In this document: piece by piece, positions 1 to 30,800 of the stretch
How positions within the stretch are numbered: position 1 is the first letter of the stretch
How the letters are laid out: the number at the start of each line of letters is the position of its first letter
Notes under the pieces: generated by a model
The model's database searches: none
What the model saw: the letters and a program-made list of their open reading frames with translations, nothing else
What the model was told of the DNA's origin: nothing
NCBI RefSeq assembly: GCF_964340395.1
Contig: NC_135561.1
Coordinates: 8,575,732-8,639,731 of the forward strand
Length of the DNA stretch: 64,000 nt
Reading direction: 5' to 3'
DNA from: Glandiceps talaboti
Taxonomy: Eukaryota; Hemichordata; Enteropneusta; Spengelidae
Position numbers and translations under genes: made by a program

Positions 1-177
1 TAATTGGTATAATATTCGAAATTACAAATTAACTACCATGGCAACGGTATGTTATTCTTCTCCACTATTAAACACAGTGCCATAGCATTCTTTTGATATG
101 TGTCAGTGAAAGTTAATCTATTTCAGTTAAACAGAAAGTCCAACAAAAGTTTGAACGGAATTTAAGTTGTATCCTAC

Positions 178-7035: not shown

Positions 7036-10000
7036 GGACGTGGCCAGGCCCGAGAACACAGTGCTGCTAATATAAGAAGTGGTGCAGAAACTGCAATCTC
7101 TGTCGTGTCATGGAATGCCAACGGTTTGAAAAGACACTTATCGAACTATGACTTGATAAATCAACTTTCTAAATTTCCAATTGTTTGTATTTGTGAGACA
7201 TTCGCAAATAGTTGCGATCAATATAAAGATCTTTTACCAGGTTTTACAGGGTTTGCTAGTTGCAGACAAAGAGCTACTGATGTTGGTCGCAACTCTGGTG
7301 GTATTTTAGTTTTTGTTACTGACGTTATTGTGAAACATGTTAAAAGAATCTACAGTCATTTGAATGACATAATATTTATTGAGCTTAAAAAAGATGTATT
7401 TAATATAACTAGAAATTTTTGTATTTACTTATATCTCTCCAGAAGGGTCAAATATTTATACTCAAGGTGAACATAATGGTATTGTACGTCTGGAAAATCA
7501 CCTCACGCAATTGTATGTTGATTATCAAGATTTTGATTTGGTTTTAGCTGGTGATTTCAACGCTAGAACGGGTAGAACGTTAGATTTTATCCCAGTAGAT
7601 TATCATGATGTATCTGATCCTATAGATTACGATGATTTTAATATTAACAGACAAAGTAAAGACTCGCAGGAAAATAATTTTGGTCGCGCACTAGTTGAAC
7701 TTTGTTGCAGATTAAACGTACATATTTTAAATGGCAGATTTGATGGTGACATAAATGGAGAGTACACCTGTTGTACTAGCCAAGGTGTTAGTGGTGTTGA
7801 TTACATTATAGCCTCAACTTCTTTGTTCGAATTTGTGAAAGACTTTAAGGTTGGGATTATTGACGTATCAGATCATTTCCCCGTCAGTTGTCAATTTCAT
7901 TTTAAAAACAATAATTATTGTGAAAGCGATAATGAAATGGTTATATCACCATGGCAACGTTTTATTGGAAAGAACAGTCATCTGCTGTATACGAGGAGAA
8001 ACTGCAAGACGAAGTGTCACTTAATTTGTTTACTCAGTTTGAAAATAACATTGCTAATGACAACATTGATGGTGCTGTTACTTTGTTGAATGATGTCATT
8101 GGACGAGCTGCACAGAGTATGCAAAGTACCTATGACCGCAGAAATCACAACAGAGTAAACAAAGCATGGTGGGATATGGAGTGTGAAAATGCTCGAAAAG
8201 AAAAATTCAACAAGCTTAAAAAGTTTCGTTCTTCAAATAATGCCAATGCTCTAATGGAGTATAAAATGTCTAGGAATAACTTTACCCGACTTTGTCGTGA
8301 TAAAGTTAAATGTTACAAGGATAAACAAAAGAATATTTTAATGCAAAGCTGCAACAACCCCTCCCACTTTTGGAATATAATTAAAAGTATCAGGGGGGAA
8401 TGTAACGTAAACCAAAAATGTAATATTCAGCCATCCGAGTGGTTTAATTATTTCAAAACATTATTGAATCCCACTGATGCTAATTCTCATGTTGACAAAG
8501 ATTTTGGCCGAAAGGTTCACAGAGATTTGGAAGGTCACGATATATCATGTGACGAATGTCGTAACAACATACCAACAGGTGTCAATGCAAATATAACTCT
8601 TGATGAAATTTATGAAGTCATTAACAGTTTTCCAAACAATAAAGCTCCAGGGCCTGATGGTTTTATCTGTGAACTTTTCAAAAAGGGTTTGCACACACTT
8701 TCTACTCGATTGCAGCTCTTATTTAATTGTATTTTAAGTAATGGTAAATTTCCGAGCGATTGGGGTAAGGGTATTATTTGTCCTTTGTTTAAAAAAGGAT
8801 GTAGAACAGATGTAAACAATTACAGAGGGATTTCTCTCCTATCAATCACGAGCAAAATATTCACAAAGATTATAAATGGTCGTCTTGTTAATTGGGCAAA
8901 AGAACAGTCTATTATAGTTGAATCCCAGGCAGGTTTTAGGAAAGGGTATTCAACCATAGACAATTTATTTACTTTGCAATCTTTGACTTGTAAATATCTT
9001 TCACAGAGAGGAGGTCGCATGTATTGCATATTCATTGACTTCTCCAAAGCATTTGATCGAGTGAATCATGTTTACATTTGGCATAGACTCATAACTTATG
9101 GATTACATGGTAGGGATCTAGCTGTTTTACGTTCAATGTATAGTAATCTTCCGTCTTGTGTTCGTTGTAATGATGGAATTACAGATTACTTTGATTGTAA
9201 GATTGGAACGAGACAGGGATGCATGTTAAGCCCTTTTTTATTTTCTTTGTTTATTAATGAGTTAGGGAATTATATGAATGACAATGCAGCAGGTGATATT
9301 TTCGTAAGCGAAGATTCTCCTTCTGTTGGTGTCTTAATGTATGCTGATGACGTTGCAGACGCGGCAGATCTGCCAATCTGGTTACAACGTAAAGTGAATA
9401 AGCTAGAAAAAATTTGTGAACATTGGGCAATGGAAATAAATTTGGACAAGACAAAGATAATTGTCTTTCGTAATGGAGGTCCATTAAGACGGTCTGAGAA
9501 ATGGTTTTATAGTGGACATGAGATAAATGCTGTGTCATATTACAACTATCTAGGCTTATTAATTTCTTCACGATTATCTAGGTCACCGGCAAAAAAGAAC
9601 TTACTTGTGAGGGGGAACAAAGCACTATTTCAAATTCAAACTGTTATCAGGAAGTTAGGTACATGTATATCACTCAAACATTCGTTTAAACTGTTCGATG
9701 CAATTGTTGTACCAATAGTTTGCTATGGTAGTGAAATTTGGGGGTTTGAATATGCTGAACAGGTCGAAACAATACAGTACAGGTTTTGCCGTTTTCTGCT
9801 TGGTGTAAACAGTAATGTTAATTCAGGGGCTCTACTTGGAGAATGTGACAGATTTCCTCTTTGTTATGTATATTTTAAACGCTGTATCAAGTATTGGGTA
9901 AAGCTGATTGGTATGGAAAGTGATAGGTATCCCAAAGTGGGTTATTTAATGCTGAAAAGACTTGATCAAGCAGGTAGAATAACTTGGGCTACACATATTA

Positions 10001-10549
10001 AGCGTTTGTTGATGAGATATGGATTCGGCATTGTTTGGTTTGAGCAGCAGGTTGGTGACCAAGAAGTTTTTATAAAATTATTTTCTCAAAGATTAAGAGA
10101 CTGCTGTTTACAGGAATGGTCTACCGCAATCAATGGTTCAGCCAGACTTCGTACATACAGTGAATTCAAATCAGAACTTGAACCTGAAAAGTATCTAACG
10201 TGTATTTCAGTTTTTGCCTTTAAACAGACTCTGGCTCGATTTCGATGCTCAAGTCACAAAACTTAGAATTGAAACGGGAAGACATGAAAATGTGTTTCTA
10301 GACGATCGTAACTGTCCTTACTGTACTCACCAAAATGTAACTATTGTAGAAGATGAATATCACTTTCTTTTGGTATGTCCATTATATGCTCTTGACAGAG
10401 TTAGATATATTCCACCACAAGTTCATATTTTTCCGTCCAAGGAAATGTTTGTTGCCCTTCTTTCTAGTACAAACCTTCACCTTATACATCGTTTATCAAT
10501 TTACGTATTTAAGTCTTTTAAGACAAGAGAGACTTTTGTTCAATTATAG
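7036..10549 (+). pseudogene. LINE ORF2: endonuclease and reverse transcriptase
   Basis: The endonuclease starts with VVSWNANGLKR (about 7099). It continues through CICETFA, then after a frameshift near 7415 through YISPEGSNIYTQ, AGDFNARTG, and ends with VDYIIAS and VSDHFPVSCQF. A second shift near 7940 leads into the long frame 7951-10266. This carries NNKAPGPDGF, GISLLSITSKIFTKI, QAGFRKGYST, FIDFSKAFDRVNH, GTRQGCMLSPFLFSLF, the catalytic MYADDV, and EINLDKTKI. A third shift near 10220 leads to the tail CPYC.....VEDEYHFLLVCPLY, a common Cys/His motif at the end of such LINEs. The protein would nick target DNA and prime reverse transcription from it. The shifts mean this copy cannot make a full product. 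Confidence 0.88.
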
Positions 10550-19700: not shown

Positions 19701-22031
19701 TGTCACGAAGTAGTTTGTACTAGGGCTATAAAACTTAACGGCAGGTTCCCGACTTACAAAAAAAAGCAAGCAGGTGTACTCAATGGGCAGATTTGTGGTT
19801 TCCATTAATCATATGTTGTTTCAGACGAAAAATGATGTTTTTAATGGAATCGCCCCTCAAACAAAATTGCGGGGAGGGTGTTTAGCTGTACGTTCTTATG
19901 TGCCCCCCCCCCCCCACTGGTGGTGAAGGATATCTGCACTCCCTCCCCTCCCTTCTACAACTTGCCCGCCAGCCCACTGCCCAACCAACATTTGTGCGAT
20001 TTACCCACTTTCTCAGGAAATAGTTTATGATTTCACTCATTAGTACACAATGTGTACGTGTGCCCCCCCCCCCCCATTCCATATGTTTCCCTCACACTGC
20101 ATTAAAATCGGGATTTTCCTGCTTGTTTGCTTCCCTCTCGCTACCAACTGGGAAAAATTTCCCGCCCACTGAAAAATTGCACAAGAACAGCGTTTTGCAA
20201 GAACAGCTTCATTGGCTGCACTAGACTGTACCGCATGGGGATTGGTAGCAGTTGGTATTTTCATCTATTATAACTGACTGAGAAAACTAAAAATTGCACC
20301 GGCGAAAAATCTATAGTGGAATATATTATGTTTTATTGCGTTTCTAGGCCATCGGTTCATATGCAAAGTTTACAAATAGTGAAAAAATACACTTCTGTCG
20401 TACAGATAGCAAAAGTGAGAGAAAAAAGATATTACTTGGTATTTACCTTGAAAGGTCTCATCTCCATACTTAGCTTTATATACAGTGAGATATCTGAATT
20501 AGCAGTATTAATTATAAAGTAATGGGTTGGTTGTGAACATTGATTGGTAAGAGTTGATTTCTAAGGTGATCGATCATATACTGGACAAATTCAAAGAATG
20601 TGGTACTCATCTTCGACATCCCCTAAGTTGCAAATAGTACAAGAGTAGCAACGAGACGAAATGAATAAACCTTATCAAAGTTCTGAATTTTAGTAGTTTT
20701 CGGTGATACCGAAACGATAGATTTACAACATCGTCCTCCCTTCTATAAGAGTTGGCCTCAAATCTATCACATAACATTATCTACCTGTTCTCTTTAAGCT
20801 GTAGCTGTGTCACGTCTGCCTGGAGAAAGTCAATATTCTTGTGATGTCCATTCGTCTCTTTGTTCTTTTCAACGAACGACTCCATAAAATCGACCGCGGT
20901 AACGTGTTCAGCTTTTTCTGCTAAAATTCCAGTAAAACGTCTGAAAAACAAAACACCACTATCCCCTTTAATTTGTGTCCAGTCCCTTAGTTTGCCTGAT
21001 TGAGTCATCCCCGCGAAGTAATTTCCCTCTAGCTCTCTCGCTGCGGGGAAAACATTTCACTGGTATGCCATAATTCTATCATTTCTATTACACCAGTATG
21101 TGTAGCCATCGTACAATATTTGATAATCTCGTTCAAACTACCATCTTGTTTGTTCGAACTTGCTTGTATGTGTATACAATTGTAATCAGGAGCAGAATAC
21201 ATTTCATAAAGTTCTCAAAATCATGACTAATTGTCATCATTGAATGTATACATCAAACATCAAAACTGTAATGCCCGTATAAAATGTGTGAATTGTGGCA
21301 TTAAAATCACTGAAATCGTAAGAATGAAATAGTATAAAACAAACAAGTTTCCAAGATGGTAGTTGGAACAAGATTATCAAATATTATACGATGGCTACAT
21401 ACTGGTGTAATAGAAATGATATAATTGTGACAGGTACCACGCACAATCTTGTTTAAGGTCATGTCGTAACATAACATAACATTGACATTAGCGATTAAAC
21501 TCGAAACCAAATTGCTCACAAAAATGTCGACCACGTGACATGTACGACGAAAGTATGCAGACATCTAAATCGTCTGCAACACTAATTTGGGGCTGAAATA
21601 TGTAATAGTCACGTATATGGTATAGTATTTCCTATCTCTGCACGCATGTGAGATCGGATTATGGATGTTCTAATTGGTATAATATTCGAAATTACAAATT
21701 AACTACCATGGCAACGGTATGTTATTCTTCTCCACTATTAAACACAGTGCCATAGCATTCTTTTGATATGTGTCAGTGAAAGTTAATCTATTTCAGTTAA
21801 ACAGAAAGTCCAACAAAAGTTTGAATGGAATATAAGTTGTATCCTACCCAATACCAGCTCCTAGTTCCAACAGTTTCGTTCCCTCGTATTCTGGAAGCAT
21901 ATGCAATATCTCCGGTCTTTCTATTTCATCCAAGGCGTCTGATGTCGAATCAAGGATTCCTGCTTCTAATGTTGTTTCCGTTGCATGCATCTTCCAAAAG
22001 TCCGTCATTTCCCTGCGAGTTTCAACCTCAA
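15463..22031 (-). CDS. pmt: Phosphoethanolamine N-methyltransferase, single-domain (copy B), exons 2-6
   Basis: Five exons, all with AG/GT borders: 21848-22031, 20785-20940, 18059-18195, 16835-16986 and 15463-15525 (with stop). Phases fit throughout. The peptide carries MTDFWKMHA, the SAM motif LELGAGIGRFTG across the first junction, VTAVDFMESFVEKN, ADVTQ, the PMT signature FDIVFTNWLLMYL across the next, LKEDGYLFVKEACF, YRPNHNYDVMFKSL, FGFKVIFSKTLQSYKK, and the final exon KNNQFCWLLQKKRFPTT then TAA. The enzyme methylates phosphoethanolamine (or its methylated products) with SAM, towards phosphocholine, in the cytosol. Many animal PMTs have two methyltransferase domains; here a stop follows the first. 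The donor after QSYKK is GTGGGT, chosen because it keeps phase 0 with the last exon. The first exon, ending in phase 1, was not found. Introns hold microsatellites, an R4 repeat, a LINE tail and a hairpin. Confidence 0.88.
15526..16834. other. Last intron of the copy-B PMT gene
   Basis: Apart from the GACA-type microsatellite at 16609-16757, no feature is clear. A minus-strand frame at 16180-16596 contains VNRAESVIRTIIGMTRIEDI, faintly like a Rex1/CR1 reverse-transcriptase tail. It is too short and isolated to call. Confidence 0.5.
16609..16757. repeat. (GACG/GACA/GGCA)n microsatellite
   Basis: An interrupted tetranucleotide array of GGAC, GACA, GGCA and related units inside the last PMT intron. 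Confidence 0.95.
18558..18602. repeat. (GTTT)n microsatellite
   Basis: A ~45-base run of TTTG/TTCG units in PMT intron sequence, just upstream of a LINE 3' tail. Confidence 0.9.
18615..18788 (+). mobile_element. CR1-like LINE 3' tail
   Basis: Short 3' UTR remnant ending in aataaattcaattcaattca, the same terminal word (on the other strand) as the LINE at 3849-5408. It also shares a tgaggaccac..ggaaata word with that element's 3' UTR. No coding sequence remains. It lies in the PMT intron between 18195 and 20785. Confidence 0.65.
19193..19290. repeat. Dispersed repeat R4, copy
   Basis: Shares the ordered words ttctcgcaa.cca, gccgtaa.a, gtggttt.cgacgatgta with 13806-13905, and a related form with 57190-57330. 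It lies in the PMT intron. Confidence 0.55.
19379..19429. repeat. Perfect 24-bp hairpin
   Basis: Bases 19379-19402 and 19406-19429 are exact reverse complements separated by the three bases tga. The arm core is gatgtttacgtttttagcc. Part of the arm (gtaaacatc) recurs just downstream at about 19440. It lies in an intron of the PMT gene. Confidence 0.9.
19430..20784. other. PMT intron sequence, no gene seen
   Basis: Contains two poly-C runs (about 19902-19916 and 20063-20076), each preceded by a gtacg..gtg word. No coding or RNA feature is supported. Confidence 0.5.
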
Positions 22032-22311
22032 CTGTGTCGGTGAAATGTAATGTACAGTAAATATCGTGATATATAGTATCATGTAGCAGAAATGAAAGAC
22101 CTATTTATTCATCGAGGTATATTTTCACTTGGGGAAAGGCAGAGATAAAACGCTGTGAGTTTGTTTTATTTTCAGAGAACTAGATAGCCTAGGGACAAGT
22201 TTAAGGTCAAGTCCGATAATAAGCTGTACCAGTTGAGAGTACGCTAGAGATTATTAATTGGAGCTACTTCACTAGACTCCGTCGCGTGTTATTGCGATCG
22301 GTGCATCGGTG

Positions 22312-22696
22312 AGATGAAACGTTGTAACCTCTGTTTAACTGAGAAACTTTGGGTAACCAATGCTGAAAAGGGTATGTTACTGCACAAAAAATCCGAACTG
22401 GTCTCGAAATGTCGCCATGAAGGCAAATACTCGCTCGCCAACTACAGAAGTAAACCCCCGTAAAGAATAGTTTAGTCCGACCATCTTGTTACGCATTAAG
22501 TGCACCCACATCATGTGAAATGGAATTGTTGAAATTGGAACTTCATAGAACCATACGGTTTAATAGTCGCATGATGATCGCAACAAGTGTGAAACTCTGA
22601 GTAACGACTCATAACATCCTTACTCTTTTGAATTAAGCCTATAATGCTCTGCTACTAATATTTGCATCGAGCACTGTTCTCTCCAGCGAGACACTC

Positions 22697-22698
<2 letters not shown>
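22312..22698 (+). mobile_element. Old Penelope-like element remnant (copy B)
   Basis: The counterpart of 745-1113. The + strand encodes KRCNLCLTEKLWVTNAEKG and LVSKCRHEGKYSLANYRS, matching the end of the GIY-YIG protein of the younger PLE. Its tail ends in ctccagcgagacactcat, after which an AT run and the younger PLE follow. It is a broken fossil that predates the duplication. Confidence 0.72.

Positions 22699-22772
<74 letters not shown>
22699..22772. repeat. (AT)n microsatellite
   Basis: A ~74-base AT run between the old PLE remnant and the inverted terminal repeat of the younger PLE. Copy A has no AT run here. Confidence 0.95.
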
Positions 22773-22776
<4 letters not shown>

Positions 22777-22950
22777 TTGGTAGTACTGGAACTCTTTCTT
22801 GGTTGTAACTCGGAGTTTCACGCATTGCGCGATCATCAGACAACTGCTGGTTTCTACTCTCTGGGTGTGTGTGTATATATAGAGTGCAGACAATAGAAAT
22901 ACCATCACTATTGTCTGTGTGTGTATATAGAGTGCAGACAATAGAAATAC
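22773..22950 (-). repeat. PLE terminal repeat, left, inverted
   Basis: Reverse complement of 23953-24149 apart from small length differences in TA/CA runs. It carries the minus-strand hammerhead at 22802-22844. Confidence 0.88.
22802..22844 (-). ncRNA. Hammerhead ribozyme motif (left PLE repeat)
   Basis: Read on the minus strand: stem I strand GUUGU, core CUGAUGA, stem II CGC/GCG with loop GCAAU and a U-U pair at its base, core GAAA, minimal stem III ACU/AGU closed by CCG, cleavage dinucleotide UU, then the stem I partner ACAAC. All conserved core bases of the hammerhead are present. The very short stem III is typical of the minimal hammerheads reported in PLEs. The ribozyme would cleave the element RNA within its terminal repeat. 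Confidence 0.8.
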
Positions 22951-23820
22951 ATACACACGCAGTCTAACCACCTACCCAGCATCATCAAGAACATATCGTC
23001 AGCCATCGGCCGTAGAATTTCCGACATATCATCCGACGAACACATCTTCAACCAGGCAGCCCCACTGTACCAAAATGCACTAAAAACCAGCGGCCACAAA
23101 GAGAACATCACGTACACCAGCACCCCGACGCAGAAAAACAAGAAAAACAGAAATAGAAACACCATCTGGTTTAACCTACCATACAGCAAAAACGTAGCCA
23201 CCAATGTAGGCAAACGATTCCTCAACCTAATCGCAAAACATTTCCCAGCAGACTCTAAGTTACACAAAATATTCAACAGAAACAATGTCAAAGTCAGTTA
23301 TAGCTGCATGCCAAACATGGCTACCATAATCAAAGCGCATAACGCCACCATCTCCAACAGCGAAACTAAACCCACTCAAAAACCTTGTAATTGCAGACAG
23401 AAAGACACCTGCCCTTTGAACGGCGAATGCCAAACGGAAAACATCGTATACCAAGCCACCGTCCACGGAAAACAAACAAAAGTATATATCGGTCTAACAG
23501 AGAACAACTTCAAACAGAGATACGCCAACCACAAACAGTCATTCAAACATGAAAAACACGAAAACAGCACAGAACTATCAAAACACATTTGGAAACTGAA
23601 AAGAAACAATGAGCCTTTTTCCGTATCCTGGTCCATCAGCAAGACAGCCCAAGTATACACCAATAAAACAAAACGATGCAACCTGTGTTTAACCGAAAAA
23701 CTAACTATTATTAAAGCAGCCAAAAGCTCCACACTAAACAAAAGAACTGAGTTGATATCCAAATGCCGACACGAGAATAAGTTTTATTTGTCCAACTTCA
23801 ATAGAGCACCTATCACCTAA
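22945..23820 (+). CDS. PLE GIY-YIG endonuclease region (partial protein)
   Basis: A single open frame of about 290 codons ending in TAA. It opens in the inverted terminal repeat without a natural start. Order of features: LPSIIKNISSAIGRRISD linker, NTIWFNLPYSKNVATNVGK, FNRNNVKVSYSCMPNM, a Cys cluster (CNCRQKDTCPLNGEC), then the GIY-YIG nuclease fold with VYIGLTENNFKQRYANH and ELSKHIW. It closes with CNLCLTEKLTIIKA and ISKCRHENKFYL. In PLEs this domain follows the reverse transcriptase and nicks the target. The open frame over its whole length suggests a fairly recent copy. Confidence 0.85.
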   Translation, partial: KYIHTQSNHLPSIIKNISSAIGRRISDISSDEHIFNQAAPLYQNALKTSGHKENITYTSTPTQKNKKNRNRNTIWFNLPYSKNVATNVGKRFLNLIAKHFPADSKLHKIFNRNNVKVSYSCMPNMATIIKAHNATISNSETKPTQKPCNCRQKDTCPLNGECQTENIVYQATVHGKQTKVYIGLTENNFKQRYANHKQSFKHEKHENSTELSKHIWKLKRNNEPFSVSWSISKTAQVYTNKTKRCNLCLTEKLTIIKAAKSSTLNKRTELISKCRHENKFYLSNFNRAPIT

Positions 23821-23952
23821 ACTAAACCCATTAACTAACGGAACATCAAAGCCCAACATGTAACAACCCGCCAACACTTACTTGTCCGCACCCAATAACT
23901 CACACAATAACAACCAACACCCCCACACATACAACACCTACCCACCGACACA

Positions 23953-24149
23953 GACAATAGTGATGGTATTTCTATTGTCTGCACTCTATATATACACACA
24001 GACAATAGTGATGGTATTTCTATTGTCTGCACTCTATATATACACACACACCCAGAGAGTAGAAACCAGCAGTTGTCTGATGATCGCGCAATGCGTGAAA
24101 CTCCGATCGGGTTACAACCAAGAAAGAGTTCCAGTACTACCAAAACTAT
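23953..24149 (+). repeat. PLE terminal repeat, right
   Basis: Inverse of 22773-22950. It begins with two tandem copies of a ~47-bp unit (gacaatagtgatggtatttc and following bases, at 23953 and 24000) and contains the plus-strand hammerhead at 24072-24118. Confidence 0.88.
24072..24118 (+). ncRNA. Hammerhead ribozyme motif (right PLE repeat)
   Basis: Same core as the left motif: GUUGU, CUGAUGA, stem II CGC/GCG, GAAA, stem III, UU cleavage site, ACAAC. Stem III differs: between GAAAC and GUU lie a few extra bases (ccgatcgg), which can extend the helix by a CC/GG step with a GAUC loop and one bulged U. The changes keep pairing possible. Confidence 0.8.
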
Positions 24150-24204
24150 TACGCTCTGCCACTGCGGTATAGAGCACTGTCTTAGCAGATTGATACTCAC
24201 CGAG

Positions 24205-24205
<1 letters not shown>

Positions 24206-24274
<69 letters not shown>
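24206..24274. repeat. (AT)n microsatellite after the PLE
   Basis: An AT run of about 70 bases directly after the PLE tail word caccgagtt. Confidence 0.95.
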
Positions 24275-24276
<2 letters not shown>

Positions 24277-24285
24277 TTCATGATA

Positions 24286-24531
<246 letters not shown>

Positions 24532-24577
24532 GACCCAAATATTTCGAAGAGACTGAGCTCCTCTTCATCGGTGGGTC
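24532..24577 (-). ncRNA. Hammerhead-like motif, degenerate
   Basis: On the minus strand: GACCCA, then CCGAUGA (one base from CUGAUGA), stem II GAAGAG/CUCUUC with a 9-base loop, GAAA, a very short UAU segment, and UGGGUC pairing with the first strand. The layout is that of a hammerhead but the conserved U4 is C and stem III is almost absent. It is probably inactive or a variant. Confidence 0.4.
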
Positions 24578-24858
24578 TCCAGTTCTGTCAAGCAAGTTCT
24601 GTTACACTTTAAATACTGCAGACAGTGGTTATTGTCATGCAAATTAGTGTTCTTGTCTTGGAATGGTATGAATATTACACTCAGCCAACTGTGGAATACT
24701 GGTGACTACTGGTTGCTATGTTACTGTTTTCTATTGATGCCATTGGTGAGTGTGTCTAGTTTTTTTATCCACAATGATTCACGTAGTTGACGGTAGGTTT
24801 TATCTAAACAGCAATTGGTTCCAAATTGGGCAGAAACTTTGCATGCACATACATGGGT

Positions 24859-25005
24859 ACATGGGAAGACGAATTAGAGCGGAAAAGCCAAGACAAGCCA
24901 CTAGTACAATGGAGATATATCGATGACATTTGGGGACTCTGGACACATGGAGAAGAATCACTTTTACAATACCACAAGCTACGATACGGATGTAGAGCTC
25001 GATAA
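24859..25005 (+). pseudogene. PLE reverse-transcriptase fragment
   Basis: A short frame with TWEDELERK, KPLVQWRYIDDIWGLWTHGE and LLQYHKL. The YIDD box after W.R and the WTHG that follows are the catalytic region of PLE reverse transcriptases. Only this piece of the domain is present. Confidence 0.72.
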
Positions 25006-26109
25006 ATAAATGAAGCAAAGGTGTTTTCAAAGTTTTATTAGAATCTACTCCAGGACTGTACATGCCCAATCATTGTTTTTTTTTAAAACTATTTTCAGTG
25101 AAAATACTGTTGGTTGTCGACATGTCTGATAGAAAATATCATACTCCAGTTACAGCTAGCACAACTTTAATTGATTGTAGTTTTTAAAAGAAATGAATTC
25201 ATTATTTTTAGTAGCGTTTTTGTGAGCTTACTTATTTAGCCATACCTAGTGTGGACCATATAATATAACGTTGTCACTGTGCCAAGTCTAGTCACCATGC
25301 AAGAAATGAGAGACGTCCATAGAAAGTAATCGCTTTGAAGCAAATCGTACAATGTACAAATAAATAAGAAACACAGTAAATAGATTACAAACCGTCACCG
25401 TTGCTAGCCATCTTGTACTGCTTTCGTTAATGGTATCACCTCTGAGACAACAAAACTTCCACGTTACCAAAAAGCCTTCAACTGAAGTTTCCGTCTAGAC
25501 TTCTAACAGTGATAAATGATGGTAATGTCACCAGAACGTTCCATTCAATGTTATGTAGAGGGACGAGTAACATGTATATTTCTTCTGGAGGGACTGAAAC
25601 TTATAAAACTAGTTTGGTATTGAATTTACTTCTGAACTTCGCGACCACATTATGATGAAAAGGGAGAAATAATGTGCTGTAGTGTAAACCCGGTAACATT
25701 GGCAGCATAGATCTAAATTGTTGGAATAGGGGAAAGCTTGACGAAGTAATGTCCCATATGATAAATGGAATGTTCGACGGTGCTCTGACAAGTCACGCTC
25801 CCCGTGTGCGTGAGAATGTTCATTATTACACATGTTATAAGTCACAATAATTCAGCCTGAGTAAAGGACGAACATCATAGGGTAATGATTTGTATCACCC
25901 CACTGTGTACGTCAGAAATAAAACCGGCATTTTCATTGTTGACTATGCAAATGAGATAAATTGAGATAAAATAGATCCTAATACAAAACCAATCCCTGCT
26001 GAAAATAAGCAAATAAATTCATTTGTTTCTAAGCACATACCAATCTTTCAGATTGTTACACAATATTTGAAAAAAAATATTTGTTGGTTCATAAAGTGTT
26101 TCACTACAT

Positions 26110-26915
26110 TTCTTGACCATTGCAAGTTCTGAAGTATATAACTATGCAAATTAGTTCACTGCAAAGAAATATTTTTATTAAAAACTTTAATTACCGAAGC
26201 ATAGCCCAGAGAAGAACAAAAACATATCACAAGCTTCTTAAATATTACAAACCTTCAAGTAGCGGTCGTCTATTTCAATATGGCAAAAGCCTAAATGAAG
26301 ACTTTCGATCGTCAACAGTTAGTTACAGAATTGAAAGTCTGTGGATGTGACAAAACAACTGGTCAGGAGTGTGTTGGTAGTTTTTCAAGGGTAGCGGAGA
26401 AAATGTCCATGTCACTACAGGAAAGAGTGTGTGGACAACATTTTGTGCAATTGGTGAATTCATAGATCATTGATGGGTGGTCTATGTTAAAGCATATTAA
26501 CAATAGATTTCGTTTAGATTTCAAAATCCATTCAAGAGATTTCGAAAAGGACCGTACACAAGCGGAGTTGCTAAAACACAAACTCCATGATCACATCTGT
26601 TGTAAGTATTCATTGCAGACTTGAATGCCGTGTATATGTTTTGTTGTATTGTCATGTGTGTTGGCGATTTTTCGCCCAAAACTCAACAATTAATCTATAC
26701 ACTGAAAGTTTATTTTTAGGACCAGACAGACTATTACGTTGCATTATATAAGCTTACACTCGAAAAATGTGATGTTACAACATGACAAACTTTCACAGAC
26801 ACAGACAAACTGATAGAAAGAGTCGTGTGAACCACAGACAAGTACATTATGTGCATGAACCTACATCAGAGGGGCCTGGTGTTGTTTTTGTATCAATATT
26901 TGTCAGTTTTGATAG
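26110..26915. other. ~800-bp block present only in copy B
   Basis: Copy A passes from tttcactata directly to tagtgataagaag (3680-3695). Copy B has about 800 extra bases between the matching words. The block shows no recognisable coding motif or terminal repeat. It may be an insertion in B or a deletion in A. Confidence 0.7.
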
Positions 26916-27617
26916 TGATAAGAAGTAGACTTTTTTTTCGTTCTGATCAAAGGCGTTTCTATATAATTCCTGCAATCATATGTACAAATATACAATATAT
27001 ATCAAAATTAATTTATATGTATACATATAATGCGAATATTGATTAACGTTCAGTATATATGCAAATGTCATGGGAGGGTCACGTTTTACAAAATGGGACA
27101 AAGGGGAGGGTCACTTTTTACGAATGGAGAATGGGGGGTCATGTTTTTTACCCAAGATTTCTCACTCTAAAATTGAAAAATAACATTATTAGCCTGTATG
27201 CCCTTGACATTTGTAACAATGTTGTGTAGAAACCCGGTGGCGCTTAACTTCAGTACGCAGTGCCTCAGCATGGAATTTGTGACGTCAATCATAACACTTT
27301 TAACATTGCAAAGTTAGATTTATAGTATCAATGTACACATTACGACGCTAAGATCATTACCATGTATTATGTACTATACCCAAAATCGTTTGCCAGTCCA
27401 GCTGTTATATTGAGGCAACGATCTCTCTCTCTTAAGCTTCTTCGTAGTGTTTTTAATTATTCTGCGACCCTTAGTCTGTCAAAATCTTCAGCAAGATTCA
27501 AAGACCGTGTTGTAATTATAATGTGTTTTTATTGGTGACTTTTTTTCTTTTTTCTTTTGATTTATTTGGTGACTTAGAAGTCCATTGAGTTGGCAAGTCC
27601 CAATAATCAATAGATAA

Positions 27618-27679
<62 letters not shown>

Positions 27680-27705
27680 ATCATCACCATCATCATCATC
27701 ATCAT
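27618..27705. repeat. (CTA)n(ATC)n microsatellite, copy B
   Basis: The counterpart of 6021-6096, with an added ATC run at its right end. Confidence 0.95.
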
Positions 27706-27820
27706 ACGGGGGTGCGCGGCCCAAGTTGAAACCATCTACTTATGCGCTATTCCGCAAAAATAGACCAATTGTTGATTTCCCGGAACAAACAGACCCTTAG
27801 TTAAGGACTACATATGGCAG

Positions 27821-30800
27821 CCCCCGGGTTGCATCTCATCATGCATGCATATTACGGATTGTCGCGTAAAAGAAAAATCTTGGGGGGAAATCTTCCAGTC
27901 ATTTACCTTTATTCTTTTGATGTTAAGATATTTCTAAAGTATGGGGACGTTTCCTGTGTTATCGACCCATGATTAGGGAATTTTCAGATAAAAAGTCGAC
28001 CCATGTTTAGGGATGTTTTCATGAAAAAGTGACCGACTTGGGCGGCACATACCCGTACACTTTTCTATAGGAGTACACCCCCTGGGAATTAGTCTTTCTC
28101 CAACGTAACGTCATGTATGTGAAAATTGGTGGTTGAGGGCGTTCTACCACTCATGCTGGGACGTAAATTTTCAGTTTTAACCGAGCTATTATTTCTTTTC
28201 ATTCATTTTCACTGTTTCAGTTATCTTGATTCAATTTAGAGATTAATTCTCAAATTTTTTTTTTTTTAAAACCGGAATGTAGGACTGTTCGTGATATCTG
28301 AGTATTGAAATATGAAAATACCTAATCTTGAGAGTCGTGTCGTACGTTTACGCATGCGTCAATGAATCGGACACGCACATGAAATGGAAGCAGAAAGTTT
28401 TATTTGTTATTTTGTGAAAAGGTTGAAATGTTGCACTGAAAGAGATTGTAAAATGCATTGCATAGATAAAGAATATTAATATACAAAATGTTGAATAGTG
28501 GTAACATATATTTTTATAACCCAATCTCAGAACAAACAACCACGATATCGACACCGCATACATTTATACGAAGGTCTTCTGCAAAGTTCAAATCTCAGTA
28601 AACCTCGAAGTTACACCTTGTCAGGGCGCCCTCGGACATCGAATCCCTTTTTAGAAACAAGGCCGTTGAGAGCGCAAAGTGACACGGTGTATCCTGCAGT
28701 CTAACGCAAATACAAGTCTGTCCTACTTTGATTATTACTAACTTACACAGCTCAAAAGTTGTCTATGCGACCAGTAATGATATAATACTACGGAAATTGT
28801 TCTATCGGCAAACTAATACAAACTAAAACTATATATTTGTATATGATAGCTTACACAGGGGACACAGTACCTAGGTTATACCTCAGACCACTGATGGTCT
28901 GAGGTTATACTGAAGCAATACAATCCCAACAATCTGATTATCTTGTCTAATCTATCTCGGTTACCCAGACTCTCGCCGCTGGGGGCTCTGCCTACGAGAC
29001 CTCCCCAAACGAGATATCACAATAATAGTTTTAGTCTGTGACAGTTTTGCAAATGTACAGTTGTCGTGTGAATGTCAACTGTATTGCAATCTGTAGATTC
29101 ATTACAAAGAGGTACACTGCCTCAAACTTTAAACTTTGCGGTTTCCTGCTGTTTGATGTTTCCTAGTCCGTCGTACATACACTACACTAATCTACTGACT
29201 CGAGTGTGCTTAGTATTTAACCCAGGCAATAAACTATTATCAATAATGAATGCATTTTTATTCAGTGATGTAAACAAATGACGTCATCGCTCTATTTGTA
29301 CCATAAGCCAGTAATAATAGTAGATTATTTTGTTATGAACCAAAACCCCAAGATTTGTATATCAGCCCTACTTTACAAGTATTTGATTATCTAGCCATGC
29401 AAATGGGTACCTGGTGGGACGAAATTGTTATGGTATTGATTTACAAAAAACTTAACTGTACCCAGAGTAGTAAATGCTATATCTTACCCAAGATAACATT
29501 GTATATACCACGTTGCCCCTGACAACCGATGTCGGCTCGCAAGGGGGTTAGAATATGCCGCGATGATATCCTACTAAAGGGTTGAGAAGATAGCGTCATT
29601 TAAACGGTTTTTTTCTCGGATGAAAATACGTACACTAAACCGCTATGAAACTATTAGTATTCTAGTGTAATGTTAATGTCAAATGCATGCCTTAGATTGC
29701 AGTAGAAATAGTCTTCTAGCAATTTTAGCAGAAAAGTTGATGGTATAATAATGCGCATGCGTACCTGAATATTTGCGTGTACTTATAATAAATGTCAACA
29801 AATTGTTTATATACATAATTATGCCTAAATACCCATTTTGATATGGTTACGTATTCTCCCTGACTAAAATACTACATATATATGTTTATATTAAGCAAAA
29901 AATTCCCCAAAACTCAACCACATCTCACGCCCCTTCAAAATGGCCCTATGGGTGAGACTTTGGTATCTATTTTGTATTTCAATTAATAAAATAACTTCTT
30001 CTTTTTTTTGTAATTGAAAGACAACGTGAAACAACATATACAAAGCCCGTGCTTGTAATAAAAAGTTTGTTATAGTAGGCAGCTATTTATAAACAAACCC
30101 CAGACACAATTCTTTTCGTTTTTTTTTCTGCAATTATTGACTTGGTTTATATTGTTTCATGTTGTCTTTTTAATTAGAAAAACACAGTAAAAGTTGATTA
30201 ATTAATTAATTAAAGATCCAATTCTTCACCCCATATAACCACATTAATTAAGATTTAAATTATTAATTGTACAATTCAAAAACACATTTCGATCTATTTT
30301 GGGGTGTTATTTTCTTAGCAAATGTGAGAAATTTTTACATCATAATCTTTGGTTATCTTTGTCAAAACTTACACTTTACAAGTGAAAATACTACAAAATA
30401 ATAATTGTTATCCAAGGTTTGTGAAATGTTGCATTTTTATCACCAAAATATCAAAACCTGAAAATAGATCAGAAGGTGTTCTAATCAAAATTGTGATGGA
30501 AAGCTCTTTTGTTGTGGTATTGATTCATAAATATGTATAACTTAAAATGGTGACTGAAGAAATCAACAACTGGTAAACCATAATTTTAGTCAATAAAAAT
30601 CCTATGAATTAGAATTTGTTTTCTCACTGACCTAGAAACAAAAAGTTAATTAAAACTTCTGAAATGTTAATGATCAAATTTAAATATTTCGTAAAAGTAA
30701 CATTATTAGAAATACAAATATTATTATGATAGTTGTAAGAATAGTCCTAAATTTGTATAAAATGATTATTAAATTAAATTATAAATTTGCATGCTAAAAT

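What the first reader, a model, noticed from the sequence alone, without database searches (positions are those of the whole stretch)
22773..24149. PLE flanked by inverted terminal repeats, each with a hammerhead ribozyme
Seen directly: two 43-47-nt motifs with the complete hammerhead core (CUGAUGA, GAAA, cleavage UU) and matching stem I strands GUUGU/ACAAC, in opposite orientation at the two ends of a GIY-YIG frame. Known: hammerheads occur in terminal repeats of Penelope-like elements. The two copies differ in stem III (a 3-base loop against an extended CC/GG form) yet both stay pairable, which suggests conservation of the fold. Because the arms are inverted, a transcript through both would also fold on itself, and both strands could give a self-cleaving RNA.
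Basis: partly seen in the sequence, partly recalled or inferred. Interest (0 to 1): 0.75.

Follow-up and report, generated by a model that had tools for sequence, protein, structure and literature searches.

The report
Hammerhead ribozymes capping a folded-back retrotransposon
This is a cut-short copy of a known type of animal jumping gene whose two mirror-image ends each carry a small RNA motif of the self-cutting hammerhead type; sister copies in the same genome suggest how such elements insert, and that the RNAs that inserted had mostly not been cut at that motif.

Summary
Window 22774-24205 is a 5'-truncated Penelope-like element (PLE) in (TA)n. Its inverted arms each hold a minimal type I hammerhead (HHR): 22802-22844 (-), 24072-24118 (+). 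PLEs with inverted pLTRs, a one-sided tail and minimal HHRs are a known kind. Rfam models miss these HHRs.

The 590-Mb genome adds more. HHR pattern: 1,268 copies, control 4. Tail 34-mer: 1,682, control 0. Close HHR pairs are mostly head-to-head (18 of 24). Of 75 head-to-head pairs, 62 end at a short site S on one side and a long site L on the other; none is S+S. Arms within a copy share variants and have similar lengths. Of 100 tail-sampled arms, 29 stop at the HHR's 5' edge, 38 near S, 2 near the cleavage site.

Reading: two-strand target-primed reverse transcription, probably on one RNA beginning at the HHR; short copies are strong-stop products from uncleaved RNA. Stem I carries a double change (813 copies; mixed forms 3 and 54). 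Self-cleavage of a transcript through both arms is unlikely.

The parts
22700..22773 (.). (TA)n flank, left side (target)
22774..22950 (-). left arm: inverted pLTR copy; outer end is the short site S (TA|GTTTTGGTAGTACTGG)
   Evidence: S defined
22802..22844 (-). minimal type I hammerhead motif, cleavage position 22807/22806
22945..23820 (+). 291-aa frame: 5'-truncated PLE ORF (linker after the RT plus GIY-YIG endonuclease, about residues 155-272)
23948..24043 (+). two 48-nt repeats in the right pLTR, also in the left arm
23966..24149 (+). right arm of the inverted repeat; ends at site S
24035..24042 (+). TATA-box-like TATATATA, predicted start about 30 nt downstream
24069..24074 (+). position that corresponds to the 5'-end hot spot of other copies (-8..-3 of CTGATGA), putative RNA 5' end
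24072..24118 (+). minimal type I hammerhead motif with TCGG insertion in stem III; cleavage position 24113/24114; ATG 24080-24082 lies in the core where the ORF frame opens in the tandem copy L148
24150..24205 (+). tail between sites S and L, present on this side only
24206..24274 (.). (TA)n flank, right side

Best explanation
The feature is a 5'-truncated insertion of an EN-containing Penelope-like retrotransposon in (TA)n. Inferred mechanism: the element's RNA starts a few nt upstream of the hammerhead (TATA box about 30 nt above), so the HHR is the first structured piece of the RNA and overlaps the start codon. The PLE protein cuts both strands of AT-rich DNA. One 3' end primes at internal site L (+124), the other at internal site S (+68), probably on the same RNA. 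Both cDNAs run to the template's 5' end, or stop earlier, and are joined with little homology. This gives head-to-head arms with one S end and one L end. Short templates give palindromic HHR-HHR 'strong-stop' insertions; tandem or read-through RNA gives copies with ORF between or within the arms, as in the window. Hammerhead cleavage is not used to make the template. Shown: anatomy, end rule in the sample, arm similarity, 5'-end hot spots, lack of a cleavage-site peak. Inferred: transcription start, one RNA per insertion, joining step.
For: Orientation: of the 100 HHR places listed, neighbours under 5 kb are 18 '-+', 4 '++', 1 '--', 1 '+-'; of 134 scored EN matches (1725 candidates), neighbours under 6 kb are 18 '-+', 0 '+-', 5 same-strand. 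Ends: 62 of 75 head-to-head pairs S+L, 7 L+L, 0 S+S, 6 other; outer flanks mostly (TA)n. 5' ends of 100 tail-sampled arms: 29 at -10..-1, 10 at 0..29, 2 at 30..36, 6 at 37..56, 38 at 57..68, 10 at 69 or more, 5 upstream of -10; 95 of 123 HHR-bearing arms match the known upstream for only 3-8 nt. Similar arms: ends within 5 nt in 24 of 43 pairs, permutation mean 10.3, 0 of 20000. Same molecule: arm differences 2.1 within against 4.05 between copies (A, n=27, 0 of 20000) and 0.5 against 2.5 (B, n=8, 8 of 20000). TATAWAWA at -37..-42 in 7 of 7 pLTRs examined (A1, A2, B). Tandem copy L148: unit 2526 bp, frame opens at the ATG in the HHR core. Same biochemistry in the anole PLE PAc: both strands cut and extended, RT start 111-118 bp into the ORF, tail = stretch between two RT start sites, HHR mutants still insert.
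Against: A left arm starting at S was detected in only 43 of 100 tail-sampled copies, so many copies are not visibly palindromic. In the S-hot-spot class 28 of 38 show no left arm, which simple collision at S does not predict. The window's own arms are unequal (about 180 nt against about 1.2 kb). Without the edge-edge pairs the similarity is weaker (12 of 28 within 10 nt, permutation mean 7.1, 555 of 20000). Two of the seven L+L rows (L036, L060) have one arm that includes S; they may be neighbouring insertions. rests on BLAST matches at E<=1e-4, so very short S arms are missed and some rows may be misjudged (L127 is L+L there but has a 7-nt S arm). Matched variants could also come from gene conversion between palindrome arms. 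The TATA regions of A and B look related, so they are not independent. No RNA data fix the transcript start. The 60-locus sample was chosen by intact HHR; only the tail sample is free of that choice, and both lie on contig C1.
Confidence: 0.66

Rival explanations
1. Fold-back: one cDNA starts at L, its 3' end snaps back and copies itself outward until it reaches S, where it joins the other target end. PMC3846280 proposed self-priming for head-to-head Penelope palindromes (on an antisense template).
For: Explains matched arm variants, similar arm lengths, palindromic junctions and L+L ends when the arm stops near S. Published suggestion read as a passage.
Against: Needs copying to stop at S in 62 of 75 pairs; S and L look like the two RT start sites of PAc, which fits priming better than stopping.
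Confidence: 0.22
2. Hammerhead-driven processing: the HHR cuts tandem RNA into units that are the templates, as in retrozymes.
For: HHRs sit in both arms of the window element and at both unit borders of L148, and stem I carries a double change.
Against: Such templates would give 5' ends at +33; 2 of 100 tail-sampled arms lie at +30..+36, while 29 stop at the HHR's 5' edge and 5 go beyond. PAc HHR mutants insert normally.
Confidence: 0.05
3. The HHR core is only codons 1-12 of the ORF plus promoter; RNA cleavage plays no part.
For: Frame opens in the core; TATA just upstream; no trace of cleavage in insertions; Rfam silent.
Against: Stem I changed on both sides in subfamily A2: the 5' strand lies upstream of the ATG and the 3' change is Thr to Pro, so coding alone does not explain the match.
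Confidence: 0.25

Closest known systems
Penelope/Poseidon PLEs, e.g. PAc of Anolis (PMC11167929)
   Same: EN cuts and extends both strands; two internal RT starts near the ORF start with the tail between them; HHR overlaps the ORF start; AT-rich targets; tandem units
   Different: Here S and L are used one per end in 62 of 75 pairs; the paper reports no start-site difference between top and bottom strands in vitro. Many short HHR-plus-tail copies here.
Penelope of Adineta vaga (PMC3846280)
   Same: inverted pLTR on the left, tail optional on one of the inverted pLTRs, palindromes at inverted junctions, TATA/Inr-like in the pLTR, pLTR reaches into the ORF
   Different: low copy number there; the word hammerhead does not occur in that paper; here many arms join a few nt from the HHR core
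Minimal PLE hammerheads (Cervera and de la Pena 2014; Lunse et al. 2017; neither held, known from citing papers and from recall)
   Same: type I core with minimal stem III in pLTRs, thousands per genome in many metazoans, dimer cleavage proposed
   Different: here stem III can be drawn as 3 bp with a 3-nt loop; close pairs are mostly inverted rather than tandem
Non-LTR retrozymes of metazoans (PMC7229834)
   Same: type I HHR, short non-coding copies
   Different: retrozymes are direct tandem repeats giving circRNA by HHR cleavage; these are mostly inverted pairs with PLE ends

Membership tests
Penelope-like element (EN+) | GIY-YIG endonuclease domain | tested here: met
Penelope-like element (EN+) | reverse transcriptase in the same element | tested here: met
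   relative L148: RT fold (retrons, telomerase, group II; best E 3.4e-7, 96 hits at E<=0.001) in one 552-aa frame with the EN. Not in the window copy, which is truncated. Pfam none, PDB by sequence none
Penelope-like element (EN+) | pLTRs from tandem units; tail on one side; inverted pLTR | tested here: met
Penelope-like element (EN+) | telomerase-like RT by phylogeny | not tested
   no tree made; telomerase is among the fold hits only
Hammerhead ribozyme type I (minimal, PLE) | core CUGANGA / GAAA / UH with three helices | tested here: met
   the outermost position of stem II is U-U in subfamily A, A-U in B
Hammerhead ribozyme type I (minimal, PLE) | match to Rfam hammerhead models | tested here: not met
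   none at gathering in the window, at E<=1 in 20000-28000, or at E<=10 on both motifs and on A2
Hammerhead ribozyme type I (minimal, PLE) | covariation in stems | tested here: inconclusive
   for: 2 of 12 pairs with a double change in 8 chosen sequences, 10 of 500 shuffles; 90.6% of cells paired against 24.7-48.3% when slid; genome counts 813 / 3 / 54. But only stem I varies this way, one double change comes from a decayed copy, and few independent events underlie the counts
Hammerhead ribozyme type I (minimal, PLE) | self-cleavage | not testable with these tools
   needs in vitro assay
Retrozyme | template produced by HHR cleavage | tested here: not met
   2 of 100 5' ends at +30..+36

The most novel reading that the evidence does not exclude
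PLE integration can be read from these copies as a fixed rule: one RNA, two start sites (L for one target strand, S for the other), run-off at a capped 5' end formed by the hammerhead. The hammerhead then acts as a brake: its cut removes cap and AUG and takes the RNA out of the template pool, so only uncleaved RNAs integrate, and selection keeps stem I paired.
Probability: 0.3. Interest if true: 0.75.

Novelty: new member of a known kind. Interest (0 to 1): 0.48.

Why it matters
How PLEs transpose is called little known (abstract of PMC11167929), and the role of their hammerheads 'still a mystery' (passage of PMC7761336). One genome with more than a thousand copies gives countable predictions: S+L ends, similar arms, run-off at the HHR 5' edge, no cleavage-site ends. 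Each can be tested in the existing PAc assay and by 5'-end mapping.

Tried and rejected
Rejected or disfavoured: chance motif (control); retrozyme-type processing; truncation at random places (two hot spots); two unrelated RNAs per insertion. Led nowhere: Rfam, Pfam on the frames, PDB by sequence, Cervera 2014 and Lunse 2017 not held. The species was not identified: the best named relative is Apostichopus japonicus at 62% identity, and an unnamed ENA protein is 98% identical to the L148 frame. Scripts 35, 48 and 50 failed (time limit, crashes; 50 printed part); the numbers used come. Literature: six searches. I read the main text of PMC11167929 and passages of PMC3846280, PMC6155905, PMC7229834 and PMC7761336; in these I saw no count of S+L ends and no mention of a 5'-end hot spot at the HHR edge, but most subscription papers are not held. 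Rows seen twice: L085/L086 and L102/L103 (same places); the same overlaps exist in the tail sample as separate tail sites. Never answered: the genome-wide count of GTTGT..TTACAAC, of the TCGG stem III variant, of the tight-pair pattern, and the scan for other cleavage triplets (GAGTM).

Full report
Observation. Both hammerhead motifs and the inverted arms are in the sequence as described. The left motif is 22802-22844 on the minus strand, the right one 24072-24118 on the plus strand. The right copy has a 4-nt insertion (TCGG) in stem III; of 123 HHR matches tallied only the window shows it, while a copy elsewhere has a different insertion in stem III (C8:15145660). Rfam does not recognise the motifs (A2).

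Genome survey. The window lies in a 590-Mb assembly. The HHR pattern has 651+617 copies (control 3+1), a tail 34-mer 817+865 (control 0+0), and subfamily A2 414+399 (control 0+0). Samples: 60 stretches covering part of the 100 HHR places listed, and all 100 tail places listed (79 fetched inside earlier stretches). The places listed are all on contig C1, because only the first places are listed.

Architecture. Close copies are mostly head-to-head: 18 '-+', 4 '++', 1 '--', 1 '+-' among HHR neighbours, and 18 '-+', 0 '+-', 5 same-strand among EN frames. Arms end mostly at one of two sites, S (+68 in family A, +74 in B) or L (+124 in A, about +134 in B). Of 75 head-to-head pairs, 62 have one S and one L end, 7 have L+L, none S+S, 6 are other. 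Five of the L+L rows (four places) have arms that hardly include S; two (L036, L060) have one arm that does. The match threshold hides very short S arms, so the L+L rows are uncertain. In the tail sample a left arm starting at S was detected in 43 of 100 copies; the rest show none within 260 nt. The window element obeys the rule: S at 22774, L at 24205.

Where arms stop. In the 100 tail-sampled arms, 29 stop at -10..-1 of the core, 38 at +57..+68, 2 at +30..+36 around the cleavage site (+33), 10 at 0..29, 6 at 37..56, 10 further 3', and 5 go beyond -10. Of 123 HHR-bearing arms, 95 match the known upstream for only 3-8 nt. A TATAWAWA box lies at -37..-42 in all seven pLTRs examined, which predicts a start at -6..-12; its background is 281 of 246,318 positions, but the A and B regions look related. 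I read the first hot spot as run-off at the RNA's 5' end. The second hot spot has no settled cause: 28 of its 38 copies show no left arm, which a plain collision model does not predict.

One RNA per insertion. Arm ends agree within 5 nt in 24 of 43 pairs (permutation mean 10.3, 0 of 20000); without the pairs that both stop at the HHR edge it is 12 of 28 within 10 nt (mean 7.1, 555 of 20000). Arms of one copy are more alike than arms of different copies. Of 35 complete palindromic pairs the junction letters are alike only twice, L011 with one in L013, and L019 with L020 on the other strand, so most palindromes look like separate events. Twin priming on one RNA and cDNA fold-back both fit; the S+L rule and the PAc data (both strands cut and extended, two internal starts) favour the former.

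The hammerhead's role. Arms that reach the HHR mostly keep all of it and do not start at its cut site, so those templates were uncleaved. This agrees with PAc, where HHR mutants insert normally. Yet stem I changed on both strands in subfamily A2: GTTGT/ACAAC became AGTGT/ACACC, 813 copies, against 3 copies of one mixed form and 54 of the other; the count of GTTGT/ACAAC itself with the same pattern was not obtained. The 5' strand is non-coding and the 3' change replaces Thr by Pro, so coding alone does not explain it. The pair count on eight chosen sequences gives two double changes (10 of 500 shuffles); one of them comes from the decayed window copy. This is suggestive, not strong, since few events underlie many copies. 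The isolated hammerhead folds are weak (-4.5 and -1.7 kcal/mol, against -12.3 and -8.7 for each motif's own MFE), and in the window element the opposite arm would win by far (-77.2; nested energies only, no tertiary contacts).

Known or new. Inverted pLTRs, a tail on one of them, palindromic junctions and TATA/Inr-like letters in the pLTR are described for Penelope of A. vaga. Internal RT starts, HHR at the ORF start and a protein-assisted HHR are described for PAc. Thousands of minimal HHRs in metazoan genomes and in PLEs, role unknown, are stated in PMC7761336. The window element is therefore a new member of a known kind. What I did not find in the papers seen is the counted S+L end rule, the HHR-edge run-off and the lack of cleavage-site ends among insertions.

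Noticed in passing
window 22248-22463 (+) and 22565-22610 (+): Remains of another PLE: C-terminal frame (KRCNLCLTEKL..) followed by a decayed hammerhead (C3 changed, ATGATGA) with its own stem I letters and a similar tail before (TA)n.
   Followed up: partly
window about 24520-24590 (-): By eye, a hammerhead-like motif of another kind (CCGATGA .. GAAA, possible stem I GACCCA/TGGGTC, AUAU at stem III). Rfam shows no hammerhead at E<=10.
   Followed up: partly
window 24808-25005 (+): PLE RT-like fragment with YIDD motif (motif assignment recalled; Pfam none), a family other than the one studied.
   Followed up: no
window 24293-24526: Near-perfect palindrome (117-nt arms, 99%) centred on (TA)n and bounded by a PLE-like tail.
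   Followed up: no
window 7936-10266 (+): 776-aa open frame that looks by eye like a non-LTR (LINE-type) reverse transcriptase.
   Followed up: no
G000:C14:12953603: EN match inside an open frame listed as 2185 aa: possible in-frame tandem PLE units.
   Followed up: no
G000: Possible intermediate subfamily with AGTGT/ACAAC (54 hits, mostly ..CACCATG..), with stem I mispaired.
   Followed up: partly
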